32,435 bases of DNA, taken from positions 1-32,435 of the IMG/VR virus record IMGVR_UViG_3300030118_000809. The stretch is one strand, 5' to 3'. The position numbers were made by a program, and so were the translations under genes. Below are positions 7,117 to 10,756 of this stretch, in pieces (position 1 is the first letter of the stretch; every line of letters begins with the position of its first letter). The DNA comes from a virus. Under the pieces are notes generated by a model, which saw only the letters and a program-made list of their open reading frames with translations, was not told the DNA's origin and searched no databases.

Positions 7117-7704
7117 TTAAAAAAAAGATTCTTGAGCTGGGCTAACCAATTTATTTGTTTTTTTATTTATAATATAATCAATGGCTATTTTCATTTCTTG
7201 TTCATTGTTATTACTTAACAAAGAATGCTCCCATTTATTTTTTATATTATTTACTGTGGTTCTTTTAGCATTTAACCATTTTTCAGTTTGATTGTCTCCC
7301 CTTTCAACATGTCTGTTCTTTTTTATTTCTTCATCTGCTTTTAAAATAATTAATCTAAAGTTTATTGGCAGCTCACACATAAATTGTATTAAACTTGGTT
7401 TAAAAAGTCTATCACCTTCTAACAAAACATGTTTATTGTCTTTTTTGTTCTTTATGTAATCAATAAATACTGGCTGAACCGCCATGCTTAACCGATCTGT
7501 GCCATCAAATAAATTATTTTCATACAATCCAGCAACAACATAATCATTGCTTTGATGACCCTTTAACAACTTTTTGTGTTCAAAGTTTTTATTTATTTTA
7601 AAATCTTTTATTATTTTTCTCATAATTGTTGATTTTCCAGAGCAAGGCTCACCGCCAATTAACGTTAAATCAAAATAGTTTTTTGTTTGCCTAAAATAAT
7701 TCAT
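7117..7704 (-). CDS. P-loop kinase of the hypermodified-base (5-hydroxymethyl-dU DNA kinase) type
   Basis: A 195-residue P-loop protein. Walker A is GEPCSGKST at residues 18-26. GTDRLSMAVQP lies at 68-78 and a Walker B-like HVLLEGDRLF at 92-101. The lid region has arginines (RHVERGDNQTEKW, then KRTT). The GTDxLSM and EGDRLF pair fits my memory of the base kinases of thymine-hypermodified phages. Those enzymes phosphorylate 5-hydroxymethyluracil within DNA to give a leaving group. The helical domain sometimes fused to such kinases is absent here. The gene overlaps the transferase gene by 14 bases and closes the modification cassette. The exact substrate is inferred from the neighbours; a generic nucleotide or polynucleotide kinase is the alternative. 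Confidence 0.75.
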   Translation of the reverse strand: MNYFRQTKNYFDLTLIGGEPCSGKSTIMRKIIKDFKINKNFEHKKLLKGHQSNDYVVAGLYENNLFDGTDRLSMAVQPVFIDYIKNKKDNKHVLLEGDRLFKPSLIQFMCELPINFRLIILKADEEIKKNRHVERGDNQTEKWLNAKRTTVNNIKNKWEHSLLSNNNEQEMKIAIDYIINKKTNKLVSPAQESFF

Positions 7705-8590
7705 AGTTATTTAACTCCTTTAACACTTTTTTAGGAAAATATTCTTTTCTGTAATCCCAAAGAGGACTCCAATTTACACCCTCTTTCACGTTACATTGCA
7801 TTTTATAAATCTCTTTTCTTTGTCTTTCAACATAATATCCCACATATCTTTTATTATTTTTTTTATATTTTTTATAAGCACATAAACTTGTTTCTATTGC
7901 CCAAACATTAGTGTCATGAGGTCTTTTGTTTTTTATTTTCTCATAAAGCAGCCAAAATTGTTCTGTCAAATAATCGTAGTGCTTTTGATTTAATTTTTCT
8001 TTTCTGTTATAACTTATTAAATCGTCCCTTCCCAAAGCATAACACAACCCATTTCTTGATGATTTTGCATTTTTTAAGTCCAATCCATTAGGTTCTATGG
8101 GGTAACCAGTTAAGTGATGTATAATATCTAAATAAATAAACATAGTAAACCTACCCATTTGATAAACTTTCATAAACTCGTTAAAACAATTTTTATAAGT
8201 TTGATGTTTATCACTAGTTTTTAAAGTTTGAAATTTAATAACCTGTTTTTCTCCAACTATATTTTTATAAGATTTTACAATTTGTACAAACAAATTTCTA
8301 CTTCTTATCCAAGCTCTGTCCGTAGTAAATATTAATTTTTGTTTGTTAGCAAACCACCATCTTTCCATTCTATTAAAATCTATTAATTCATAATCTGGAA
8401 ATTCATTAAATATGTAATAAGCTGTTGCACCGCAGTAACAAGTTGAGTACAAAAACCCCAACCAATATCTTTGTTCCAGTGTAATGTCAAATCTATTCGC
8501 AATGTAAAGCAGGCAGCTGTTTGCTGGGTCTGTATCCCCATTGCTCATCATCTGGATATGATAGTTTATGTAATCTTCTTTTCTGTTCAT
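7691..8590 (-). CDS. Amino acid:DNA transferase-like protein (alpha-glutamyl/putrescinyl thymine pyrophosphorylase family)
   Basis: A 299-residue alpha-helical protein. The stretch DPANSCLLYIANRF, then LEQRYWLGFLYSTCYCG and YYIFNEFPDY, followed by RMERWWF and TDRAWIRSRNLF, matches my recall of this transferase family. The C-terminus has WSPLWDYRKEYF. Characterised relatives replace the phosphate of activated hydroxymethyl-thymine in DNA with an amine or amino acid (glycine, putrescine or glutamate, depending on the phage). Here it lies between a glutamine amidotransferase and the base kinase, the expected partners. Its start overlaps the amidotransferase by 98 bases. A later ATG (8551) would shorten the overlap but lacks a better ribosome site, whereas GAGAT precedes 8590. 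The family call is from memory. Confidence 0.68.
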   Translation of the reverse strand: MNRKEDYINYHIQMMSNGDTDPANSCLLYIANRFDITLEQRYWLGFLYSTCYCGATAYYIFNEFPDYELIDFNRMERWWFANKQKLIFTTDRAWIRSRNLFVQIVKSYKNIVGEKQVIKFQTLKTSDKHQTYKNCFNEFMKVYQMGRFTMFIYLDIIHHLTGYPIEPNGLDLKNAKSSRNGLCYALGRDDLISYNRKEKLNQKHYDYLTEQFWLLYEKIKNKRPHDTNVWAIETSLCAYKKYKKNNKRYVGYYVERQRKEIYKMQCNVKEGVNWSPLWDYRKEYFPKKVLKELNNYELF

Positions 8591-9209
8591 TTAATATCTC
8601 ATAATTGTATATTTTTAATGGTTTTGTTGGTTCAGGATTGTTTAAACCCGATCTAATTAAAATATCCGAAGTGGAGGCAACAAAGTATGTATTTTTAAAT
8701 CTGCTATAATACATAGGTCTTAAATTGTTTCTTAACAAAAAAACTTTGTTTTTATTTATGTATAATCCAGCAAAAGAAATGTTTTTATTGTCCACAAATT
8801 GAATGGCTTTATCTATGTTATGCAAAAAAACTTCTCCATCATTTTCTGTTTTTAATTTTAAATCAAATTGTTTTTCCATCTCTTTCTTTGTTTTCATGCT
8901 AATAACACCATTAAACACCAAAGAATTATTATTTAACAATATTGGCTGATTGTTTTTATGTTTCTTCCAATCACCGCTAGTGCTGTACCTATTATGAAAA
9001 ATATATTCTTTTGTTACGTTTTTTGCAAAATAATCTAAACATTTTTCTATTTTGTGAAATTTCTTTGTTATTATTTTTTCATCAGCAATGTAACTCAAAC
9101 CAAAACTATGCACACCTCTAATAGCAGATTCTTTCATTACCCTTATGGCAAATCTTTTTTCTTCTAAGTTTAATTTTTTTTTAGATAAAGTTGTTGCTAT
9201 ACCGCACAT
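8493..9209 (-). CDS. Stand-alone class II glutamine amidotransferase (Ntn hydrolase)
   Basis: A 238-residue single-domain enzyme that should release ammonia from glutamine. All glutaminase landmarks of the GlmS/PurF type are present. C2 follows the start methionine (MCGIATT) and becomes the N-terminal nucleophile after methionine removal. R31-G is in RGVHSFG, HNRYSTSG has R74, FNG has N100-G101, and D124 is in ENDGE. RNNLRPMYY at 160-168 matches the usual RDxxRPL element. No synthase domain is attached, so ammonia must pass to a partner, most simply the transferase encoded by the overlapping next gene. The start forms TAATG with the dioxygenase stop. Ammonia transfer to a modified base is inference. 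Confidence 0.82.
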   Translation of the reverse strand: MCGIATTLSKKKLNLEEKRFAIRVMKESAIRGVHSFGLSYIADEKIITKKFHKIEKCLDYFAKNVTKEYIFHNRYSTSGDWKKHKNNQPILLNNNSLVFNGVISMKTKKEMEKQFDLKLKTENDGEVFLHNIDKAIQFVDNKNISFAGLYINKNKVFLLRNNLRPMYYSRFKNTYFVASTSDILIRSGLNNPEPTKPLKIYNYEILNEQKRRLHKLSYPDDEQWGYRPSKQLPALHCE

Positions 9210-10117
9210 TATAAAATGCCATCAATATATCTTTGACCAATAGAACGCTCTTGAATCTGAGCTTTTTTTAATTCTTCAGATGGTTTTAAACATTTGTACA
9301 TTTTTTTTCTATAATACATAACAAAAGACAACCTAACCGCATTTTTTGTTTTTTTTATTATTTCAGTATTTCCATGAACTTGATGAACATCAACCAACAA
9401 CAAATCGTTAGAATCAATATTTATTGCTATGCCAAATTTAGGCAAGACCAAATAAACAGGCTCAATATCTCTGCAGTAAGCAACTAAATTTCCAAACCCT
9501 TGCGGATAATCTCCAGCATCCGTATGAAAAGTTGTTCTATAATCTTTGTTTACTGTAATGGTTGAAAAAGCAGTATTGCCAATTCTATAATATGGGTCTG
9601 TTCCTAAAACCATTTTGTATTGTTTTTCATATCTATCTGGGACAATTTCTTTGAATCCATAATTTACTGCTTCAATCAAAGGCATTGCTTTTTCAAATTT
9701 TTCTTTTTGATTCATATTAAATGCTGTTTTTCTGCAGTAATTATCTCTACCGCTTGGATCAAAAAATCCTGTAATGCCACTCAAAGGCAATTTTTGTTCC
9801 CCAGTAATTTTGTCTACTGTAACCATAGTTCTAGACTTTTTACCATCTTTTCGTATCAATGCTTCTCTTGACGCACCACTACTTATCCCCCTGTTTGAAG
9901 TTGGTTTAGCAGCGTATTTCATGTTTTGATATGCTTGTTCTAAAACTTCTTTTTTAATATAATTTTTTCTTAAAAAAAATAAAGGGTTGCCATAATAATC
10001 GTAACAATTTGCATCTTCATCTACTATTGTATCATAATGTTTTTGTGAAGCGTATTCATTTAACAACTTTTTAGTTTCGTTTTCAGTAAGTTTATATTCT
10101 GCTTTTATGTTTTTCAT
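9209..10117 (-). CDS. TET/JBP-family 2-oxoglutarate/Fe(II) DNA base dioxygenase
   Basis: A 302-residue enzyme predicted to hydroxylate the 5-methyl group of thymine or 5-methylcytosine in DNA. The iron ligands are H198 and D200 in TTFHTDAGD and H248 in VHQVHGN, and R262 (VRLSF) would hold 2-oxoglutarate. The order and spacing match the JBP/TET dioxygenase core. The motif GDYPQGFGNLV after HxD is typical of the family. So are the N-terminal SNRGISSGA block (75-83) and GITGFFDPSGRDNYCRKTAF (114-133). No DNA cytosine methyltransferase is encoded in the genome, so thymine is the likelier target. It heads the four-gene cassette of overlapping genes and overlaps the small gene upstream by 26 bases. 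Confidence 0.85.
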   Translation of the reverse strand: MKNIKAEYKLTENETKKLLNEYASQKHYDTIVDEDANCYDYYGNPLFFLRKNYIKKEVLEQAYQNMKYAAKPTSNRGISSGASREALIRKDGKKSRTMVTVDKITGEQKLPLSGITGFFDPSGRDNYCRKTAFNMNQKEKFEKAMPLIEAVNYGFKEIVPDRYEKQYKMVLGTDPYYRIGNTAFSTITVNKDYRTTFHTDAGDYPQGFGNLVAYCRDIEPVYLVLPKFGIAINIDSNDLLLVDVHQVHGNTEIIKKTKNAVRLSFVMYYRKKMYKCLKPSEELKKAQIQERSIGQRYIDGIL

Positions 10118-10316
10118 ATTCTTTTTTTATAATTTTTATTAACAAATCTGTATAATTATCTATTTTATAAACTGATAACAAAAACTCAAGTTTAATTAAA
10201 AATTGTTTTTTTTCATTTTTTGCAAAACTAATTTTCCAACTTTCAATATCAGTTTGCTCTATTTCTCCTGTTTTTTCATCAGGAAAAATATCAAATAATG
10301 TTTCTTGTTCTTGCAT
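10092..10316 (-). CDS. Hypothetical protein, 74 residues
   Basis: An acidic N-terminal half (MQEQETLFDIFPDEKTGEIE) followed by a helical, lysine-rich C-terminus (LIKIIKKEYEKHKSRI). No family is recognised. A GGAG site lies just before the ATG, and the end overlaps the start of the dioxygenase gene, so it belongs to the modification operon. The QxxLFDIF stretch resembles short peptides that bind sliding clamps (QxxLFxF-like). If so it could tether the cassette to the replisome, but the motif is short and this is only a suggestion. Confidence 0.6.
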   Translation of the reverse strand: MQEQETLFDIFPDEKTGEIEQTDIESWKISFAKNEKKQFLIKLEFLLSVYKIDNYTDLLIKIIKKEYEKHKSRI

Positions 10317-10318
10317 GA

Positions 10319-10756
10319 CTAATCTCCAAATAAAGTGTTTTCTGGATTTTTAAATGTAAATTTTTGCATTTTTTTATTTGATTTGGTAAAAGATAAGCCA
10401 TTTTCTTTAAAACCAATTGATTTGTAAAAATTATTTGATTCAATATTGTCATAATCGGTTTTTAATTCAATAGGTTTGCCAATATGTTTAATCAATTTTT
10501 TTCCATAACCTTTTCTTTTATAATTGTCATGAGTTGCTATTTCATAAATTACATTAACCCTATCTCTGTATCTACACAAATAATGACAAAAAGCTATTTT
10601 TTCTATTACAATCCAATTTTCATTTGGTTTATTATTCTCCCAAAATCTTTTCCACTGCAACGATCCATAGCCTTTCCCACCTAATATTACCTTGTTCAAA
10701 CTAAATATTTCTAAAATCCAATCTTTATCTTTTTTAATAGCTTTTCTTATTTTCAT
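10319..10756 (-). CDS. GNAT-family N-acetyltransferase
   Basis: A 145-residue acetyltransferase. The acetyl-CoA phosphate-binding turn is KRKGYGKKL at residues 80-88, after the strand VIYEIATHDNY, and the family's C-terminal NNFYKSIGFKENG lies at 108-120. The substrate is unknown. GNAT enzymes appear among the hypermodification genes of phage M6-type genomes, and this one is two genes upstream of the dioxygenase. A role in acetylating or remodelling an aminated base is therefore possible. Protein acetylation or host-factor inactivation are equally open. It overlaps the preceding gene by 23 bases and has a weak ribosome site, suggesting coupling. Confidence 0.78.
   Translation of the reverse strand: MKIRKAIKKDKDWILEIFSLNKVILGGKGYGSLQWKRFWENNKPNENWIVIEKIAFCHYLCRYRDRVNVIYEIATHDNYKRKGYGKKLIKHIGKPIELKTDYDNIESNNFYKSIGFKENGLSFTKSNKKMQKFTFKNPENTLFGD

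What the first reader, a model, noticed from the sequence alone, without database searches (positions are those of the whole stretch)
9209..10117. Phage dioxygenase that probably acts on thymine rather than 5-methylcytosine
The enzyme keeps all TET/JBP ligands (H198, D200, H248, R262), yet no cytosine C5-methyltransferase is visible in this complete genome. Characterised phage TETs in metagenomes act on methylcytosine made by a phage methyltransferase. A neighbouring kinase of hydroxymethyl-uracil type instead points to JBP-like thymine hydroxylation. That would be a post-replicative route to hydroxymethyluracil in a phage.
Basis: partly seen in the sequence, partly recalled or inferred. Interest (0 to 1): 0.75.

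Follow-up and report, generated by a model that had tools for sequence, protein, structure and literature searches.

The report
Phage dioxygenase that likely hydroxylates thymine
This small phage carries a TET/JBP dioxygenase inside a six-gene operon that most likely turns thymine in its own DNA into an aminated, perhaps acetylated, base; the idea is already in the literature for other phages, but the enzyme's substrate has not been tested and cultured relatives make it testable.

Summary
Window 9209-10117(-) is a TET/JBP dioxygenase (Pfam E 2e-22; AlphaFold model matches TET2 at Z 21) with H198, D200, H248 and R262, each invariant in 70 aligned sequences. The genome closes on itself and contains no detectable C5-, N4- or N6-DNA methyltransferase and no thymidylate-synthase-type hydroxymethylase.

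The kinase is weak evidence: its nearest isolate homologue sits in a C5-methyltransferase + TET operon. Stronger is a contrast between TET clades. In the Melnitz-type clade 50/50 contigs carry a C5-methyltransferase, right beside the TET where checked; in the window's clade only 9/91 do (4 with a clear one), and all 8 complete isolate genomes outside the Melnitz clade lack one. The operon also encodes the amino acid:DNA transferase (ADDT) of thymidine-hypermodifying phages, a class-II glutamine amidotransferase and a GNAT acetyltransferase, so hydroxymethylation is probably only step one.

Best reading: in situ T to 5hmU, phosphorylation, replacement by an amine, sometimes acetylation. TET-led thymidine hypermodification has been proposed before (phage Tonitrus, PMC11955845), so this is a variant of a known predicted kind.

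The parts
9209..10117 (-). TET/JBP-family Fe(II)/2-oxoglutarate dioxygenase, 302 aa; predicted pyrimidine C5-methyl hydroxylase acting on thymine in DNA
   Evidence: PF12851 E 2.1e-22; model pLDDT 92.9, Z 21 to TET2; H198/D200/H248/R262 invariant in 70 sequences; dN/dS about 0.09 against L002
10092..10316 (-). 74-aa protein: the small domain encoded just upstream of nearly all TETs of this clade, elsewhere often fused to a ParB_N domain; probable TET partner (inferred)
   Evidence: clusters 3 and 4 at position -1 in 88 of 100 loci; the two clusters related by hhalign, prob 94, E 1.8e-7; ParB_N in fused homologues
10319..10756 (-). GNAT acetyltransferase; predicted to cap the amine (inferred)
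   Evidence: PF13508 E 8.9e-10; GNAT-cluster genes occur in 25/33 ADDT loci with the amidotransferase and 0/14 without
8493..9209 (-). class-II (Ntn) glutamine amidotransferase domain with Cys2 after the initiator Met; predicted source of nascent ammonia
   Evidence: PF13522 E 4.4e-6, PHROG amidotransferase E 1.5e-11; C2, R74, T77, N100, G101, D124 conserved in 35/35
7691..8590 (-). ADDT, amino acid:DNA transferase; predicted to replace the activated hydroxyl with an amine nucleophile
   Evidence: PF18724 E 6e-18; tblastn to Ackermannviridae proteins, CBA120 orf248 itself PF18724 at E 1.9e-57
7117..7704 (-). P-loop kinase (PF18751 type); predicted to phosphorylate the 5-hydroxymethyl group in DNA
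   Evidence: PF18751 E 2.7e-6; Walker A G18/G23/K24 conserved in 51/51; found in 46/47 ADDT loci against 2/40 loci without ADDT

Best explanation
The gene encodes a TET/JBP dioxygenase that hydroxylates the methyl group of thymine within phage DNA after replication, giving 5-hydroxymethyluracil without a dUMP hydroxymethylase. The kinase then phosphorylates the hydroxymethyl group, and ADDT replaces the phosphate with an amine nucleophile: an amino acid, or ammonia supplied by the class-II amidotransferase. GNAT may acetylate the new amine. The result would be a hypermodified T, for example of the 5-aminomethyl-dU type, that shields DNA from host nucleases. Shown here: the gene families, conserved catalytic residues, operon linkage, co-occurrence statistics, absence of methyltransferases and hydroxymethylase, purifying selection. 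Inferred: the base (T), the order of steps, the nucleophile and the role in defence.
For: TET fold and residues. Complete genome without a detectable C5-, N4- or N6-MTase or TS-type hydroxymethylase, so thymine is the one 5-methylpyrimidine the phage DNA is certain to have. Clade contrast: C5-MTase in 50/50 Melnitz-type TET contigs, with a gap of 18-59 bp to the TET in the 16 checked, against 9/91 window-type contigs, Fisher p 3e-29; 0/8 complete isolates outside the Melnitz clade: P12024L, HTVC112P, DLP6, Cr30, C48C1, S-CBWM1, Serendipitous, Altadena. The two clades separate on the tree. ADDT, shared with T-modifying Ackermannviridae, occurs in 47 of 87 loci, pairs with the kinase (46/47 against 2/40, p 4e-21), excludes the glycosyltransferase TAGT (1/47 against 34/40, p 7e-17), and was not found in 50 Melnitz-type contigs. 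The nine further ADDT contigs found with the window's ADDT all also have a TET. At the position aligned with TET2 His1904, a base contact (own knowledge), the window clade has Arg in 70/70 and the Melnitz clade Asp in 21/24.
Against: No biochemistry. The residue aligned with TET2 Asn1387 / NgTET1 Asp234 (D203) is Asp in both clades, so the pocket is not simply thymine-like. L032, L047, L049 and L051 do carry a C5-MTase, and five more contigs carry a small MTase-like gene. The kinase is shared with a C5-MTase operon. A host enzyme could supply 5mC. Contigs within a clade are related, so the counts are not independent events; many contigs are fragments.
Confidence: 0.68

Rival explanations
1. 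The TET oxidises 5-methylcytosine that the host's own C5-methyltransferase puts on phage DNA; kinase, ADDT and amidotransferase then modify 5hmC.
For: Phage TETs characterised so far act on 5mC (Burke 2021, own knowledge; summarised in PMC12730594). A homologous kinase occurs next to a C5-MTase and a TET in Melnitz. D203 is shared with the 5mC clade. L049 has TET-ADDT-kinase and a C5-MTase.
Against: The Melnitz-type clade carries its own MTase in 50/50 contigs; the window clade lacks one in 82/91 contigs and in its two complete isolate genomes. A host MTase gives sparse, strain-dependent sites, a poor basis for a conserved pathway of five or six genes (inference). ADDT was not found with the Melnitz-type clade.
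Confidence: 0.18
2. The substrate is mixed or another methylated base: the enzyme oxidises T and 5mC alike, or N6-methyladenine, as its nearest solved relatives have been reported to do (NgTET1, CcTET; own knowledge).
For: CcTET (also solved with 6mA DNA) and NgTET1 are among the closest solved structures. P12024L has an N6/N4 MTase two genes downstream of its TET.
Against: Only 1 of 48 records of the window and sister clades has PF01555, and the window has none. The kinase/ADDT chemistry as known needs a primary hydroxymethyl group on the base.
Confidence: 0.1
3. The dioxygenase does not act on phage DNA at all (for example it oxidises host 5mC, or RNA), and the linkage to ADDT and kinase is incidental.
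For: No DNA modification has been measured for any of these phages here.
Against: Linkage with ADDT/kinase or TAGT holds across most of 87 loci, with alternative downstream branches, as expected of a DNA-modification operon; the nearest folds are DNA-acting TETs.
Confidence: 0.04

Closest known systems
Predicted TET-led thymidine hypermodification operon of Rhodococcus phage Tonitrus (PMC11955845)
   Same: ParB-like gene, TET-like J-binding protein, aGPT-PPlase2-type transferase and 5-hmU kinase in a row, proposed to modify thymidine
   Different: The window keeps only the small C-terminal domain of the ParB-like partner, its transferase scores as ADDT (PF18724), and it adds a class-II amidotransferase and a GNAT. 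The Tonitrus sequence itself was not compared here
Thymidine hypermodification of phages M6, ViI and phi W-14 (5hmdU, 5-hmdU DNA kinase, amine transfer; PMC6449724, PMC7653180)
   Same: ADDT family and the kinase-then-amine logic
   Different: There 5hmdU is thought to be incorporated from the nucleotide pool and then modified; here there is no PF00303 gene and a TET instead. The kinase is of a different Pfam family
Phage TET + C5-methyltransferase + glycosyltransferase cytosine hypermodification (Burke 2021, as cited in PMC12730594); Melnitz phages here
   Same: TET/JBP dioxygenase initiating post-replicative hypermodification; related kinase in Melnitz
   Different: The window and most of its clade lack the C5-MTase; separate clade on the tree
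Kinetoplastid JBP1/JBP2 (base J)
   Same: TET/JBP family and, as proposed, in situ hydroxylation of T
   Different: Amination instead of glucosylation in the window's branch; the sister branch (P12024L, TET + TAGT) would be the closer analogue. No JBP sequence was compared here

Membership tests
TET/JBP dioxygenases | Tet_JBP domain over the family cut-off | tested here: met
   PF12851 79.6 bits against cut-off 34.9
TET/JBP dioxygenases | HxD...H iron ligands and the 2OG-binding Arg | tested here: met
   H198, D200, H248, R262 invariant in 70 sequences; R262 aligns with the conserved Arg of TET2
TET/JBP dioxygenases | TET fold | tested here: met
   Z 21.4 to TET2 and 19.7 to NgTET1, model pLDDT 92.9
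TET + C5-methyltransferase (5mC) phage system | Phage-encoded C5-methyltransferase with the TET | tested here: not met
   PF00145 absent from the closed genome and from 82/91 clade contigs
Thymidine hypermodification (M6/ViI type) | ADDT or aGPT-PPlase transferase | tested here: met
   PF18724 65.8 bits against cut-off 26.2
Thymidine hypermodification (M6/ViI type) | 5-hmdU DNA kinase | tested here: inconclusive
   A P-loop kinase of PF18751 is present, no PF18747 match; activity cannot be tested here
Thymidine hypermodification (M6/ViI type) | Phage dUMP hydroxymethylase (thymidylate-synthase fold) | tested here: not met
   PF00303 absent from the window; the TET would take its place, so it works like this system but is not a member of it
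Thymidine hypermodification (any) | Modified thymidine in virion DNA | not testable with these tools
   Needs LC-MS of virion DNA
JBP (thymine hydroxylase) proper | Hydroxylation of thymine in DNA | not testable with these tools
   Needs an enzyme assay; no JBP sequence was available for comparison

The most novel reading that the evidence does not exclude
The window's TET clade consists of dedicated phage thymine hydroxylases, the phage counterpart of JBP. It makes 5hmU in situ and feeds two mutually exclusive branches: glycosylation (TAGT, a base-J-like end product) or amination (kinase, ADDT), where amidotransferase-derived ammonia gives 5-aminomethyl-dU that GNAT acetylates.
Probability: 0.3. 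Interest if true: 0.75.

Novelty: new variant of a known kind. Interest (0 to 1): 0.55.

Why it matters
In the papers held here I found no tested example of a phage enzyme that hydroxylates thymine inside DNA: the phage TETs described act on 5mC, and phage 5hmU is described as entering DNA from the nucleotide pool. If this clade uses thymine, phages have a post-replicative, potentially site-selective route to 5hmU and its amine derivatives, the JBP strategy has a viral counterpart, and the enzymes would be tools for 5hmU chemistry. Cultured relatives (Nonlabens phage P12024L, Pelagibacter phage HTVC112P) allow a direct test.

Tried and rejected
The kinase as proof of hydroxymethyl-uracil chemistry: rejected, because its isolate homologues are in Melnitz C5-MTase operons. 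Sequence search of solved structures for base-pocket mapping: A1 and A3 gave nothing; A2 gave only weak TET2 hits (E 0.05), usable for two short blocks; JBP could not be compared because no JBP sequence was at hand. Iyer 2013, Lee 2021 and Burke 2021 are not in the paper library, so what they say is from memory or from citing papers. HTVC023P-type pelagiphage hypermodification (PMC9599517) uses a thymidylate synthase, a different route. Carboxymethylcytosine with glutamine-dependent ligases (PMC12783734) was considered for the amidotransferase, but no C5-transferase is detectable here. Frameshift or pseudogene: rejected (open frame, dN/dS about 0.09). An incomplete genome hiding a methyltransferase: rejected by the end repeat and the capsid ORF across the junction. 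An N6/N4 methyltransferase as partner: 1/48 records. A scan of bacterial genome contigs gave eight distant hits in MAGs, not pursued.

Full report
WHAT IS THERE. The window is a complete phage genome: 98 bases repeat at its ends and the capsid gene reads through the junction. ORF 9209-10117(-) is a TET/JBP dioxygenase (PF12851, E 2.1e-22). Its AlphaFold2 model has mean pLDDT 92.9 and superposes on TET2 at Z 21.4, NgTET1 at 19.7 and CcTET at 19.0. H198, D200, H248 and R262 are invariant in 70 aligned sequences.

THE OPERON. In transcription order: GNAT acetyltransferase 10319-10756, a 74-aa protein 10092-10316, TET 9209-10117, class-II glutamine amidotransferase 8493-9209, ADDT (amino acid:DNA transferase, PF18724, E 6e-18) 7691-8590, P-loop kinase (PF18751) 7117-7704. 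L002 has the same order at 81-89% protein identity, with dN/dS of about 0.07-0.12 for the five genes compared. The amidotransferase keeps Cys2, Arg74, Thr77, Asn100-Gly101 and Asp124 in 35/35 copies, and the kinase its Walker lysine in 51/51.

NO SOURCE OF 5mC IN THE GENOME. PF00145 (C5), PF01555 (N4/N6) and PF00303 (thymidylate synthase / hydroxymethylase) are absent from the window, and no methyltransferase family appears in Pfam scans of its ORFs.

THE CLADE CONTRAST. I compared two TET clades. Relatives of the Melnitz phage TET: 50 of 50 contigs carry a C5-methyltransferase, with gaps of 18-59 bp to the TET in the 16 checked. Relatives of the window TET: 9 of 91 contigs, of which four have a clear C5-methyltransferase (L032, L047, L049, L051) and five a small C5-MTase-like protein of about 215 aa; Fisher p 3e-29. 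Eight complete isolate genomes outside the Melnitz clade have none: P12024L and HTVC112P of the window clade, DLP6, Cr30, C48C1 and S-CBWM1 next to it, and two actinophages. Cr30 does have a thymidylate-synthase-family gene, so its route may differ. On a quick tree the window clade (support 96) and the Melnitz clade (99) separate. Caveat: contigs within a clade are related and often partial, so the p-value overstates the independence of the data.

DOWNSTREAM GENES. Among 87 loci with at least four downstream genes in view, ADDT pairs with the kinase (46/47 against 2/40 without ADDT, p 4e-21) and excludes the TET-associated glycosyltransferase (1/47 against 34/40, p 7e-17). GNAT-cluster genes appear among ADDT loci only with the amidotransferase (25/33 against 0/14, p 9e-7). 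A DAO-like FAD oxidoreductase appears only where the amidotransferase is missing (0/33 against 3/14, p 0.02). So one TET type feeds two alternative branches, glycosylation or amination. ADDT was not found in any of 50 Melnitz-type contigs, although the same search rang in 25 of 50 records of the other set; the nine further ADDT contigs found with the window's ADDT all have a TET.

WHY THYMINE. ADDT is shared with the thymidine-hypermodifying Ackermannviridae (346 phage records hit; CBA120 orf248 is PF18724 at E 1.9e-57, two kilobases from a PF18747 5-hmdU kinase). PMC6449724 and PMC7653180 describe 5hmdU, its kinase and amine transfer in M6, ViI and phi W-14. With no detectable methyltransferase and no hydroxymethylase, thymine is the one 5-methylpyrimidine the phage DNA certainly has. 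This is inference, not proof.

POCKET. Aligned to TET2, D203 sits at Asn1387 and R270 at His1904, both base contacts (own knowledge). R270 is invariant in the window clade (70/70); the Melnitz-type TETs have Asp in 21/24 and Gly in 3/24. D203 is Asp in both clades. This is a suggestive, testable difference resting on a weak alignment (E 0.05).

MECHANISM PROPOSED. T to 5hmU (TET); phosphorylation (kinase); displacement by an amine (ADDT), with an amino acid or with ammonia from the amidotransferase; optional acetylation (GNAT). That the FAD oxidoreductase and the amidotransferase replace each other would fit two ways to the same primary amine, a speculation that leans on the flavin-dependent step reported for M6-type phages (own knowledge, Lee 2021).

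WHAT IS KNOWN. PMC11955845 already labels a ParB-TET-aGPT-PPlase2-kinase run in phage Tonitrus a thymidine hypermodification system. The finding is therefore a variant of a known, predicted kind, here with stronger comparative support; no biochemical test of it was found in the papers held.

Noticed in passing
window 10092-10316 (-); position -1 in most loci: A domain of about 70 aa precedes 88 of 100 TETs in the set, alone or fused to a ParB_N domain (HTVC112P, L041, L065); the two sequence clusters are related (hhalign prob 94). Possibly a TET targeting partner.
   Followed up: partly
L004 16207-18674 (Nonlabens phage P12024L): A cultured phage with TET, TET-associated glycosyltransferase and an N6/N4 methyltransferase but no C5-methyltransferase: a possible base-J-like pathway.
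   Followed up: partly
L005 7599-9195 (Pelagibacter phage HTVC112P) and L003 1478-3072: The TET is followed by an FkbM-type methyltransferase instead of ADDT or TAGT, suggesting O-methylation of the hydroxymethyl group.
   Followed up: no
window 8493-8590 (-), L002 6395-6492: The amidotransferase and ADDT genes overlap by 98 bp in different frames, and the overlap is kept in L002.
   Followed up: no
L010 4010-8090 (Methylophilales phage Melnitz-3): C5-methyltransferase, TET, an unknown 427-aa protein without Pfam match, and a PF18751-like kinase: possibly an operon that phosphorylates 5hmC.
   Followed up: partly
L103 1501-2145, L039 1954-2595, L017 5767-6438: Small C5-methyltransferase-like proteins of about 215 aa (SPPCPTHS and ENV motifs) in some phages of the TET clade; function unclear.
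   Followed up: no
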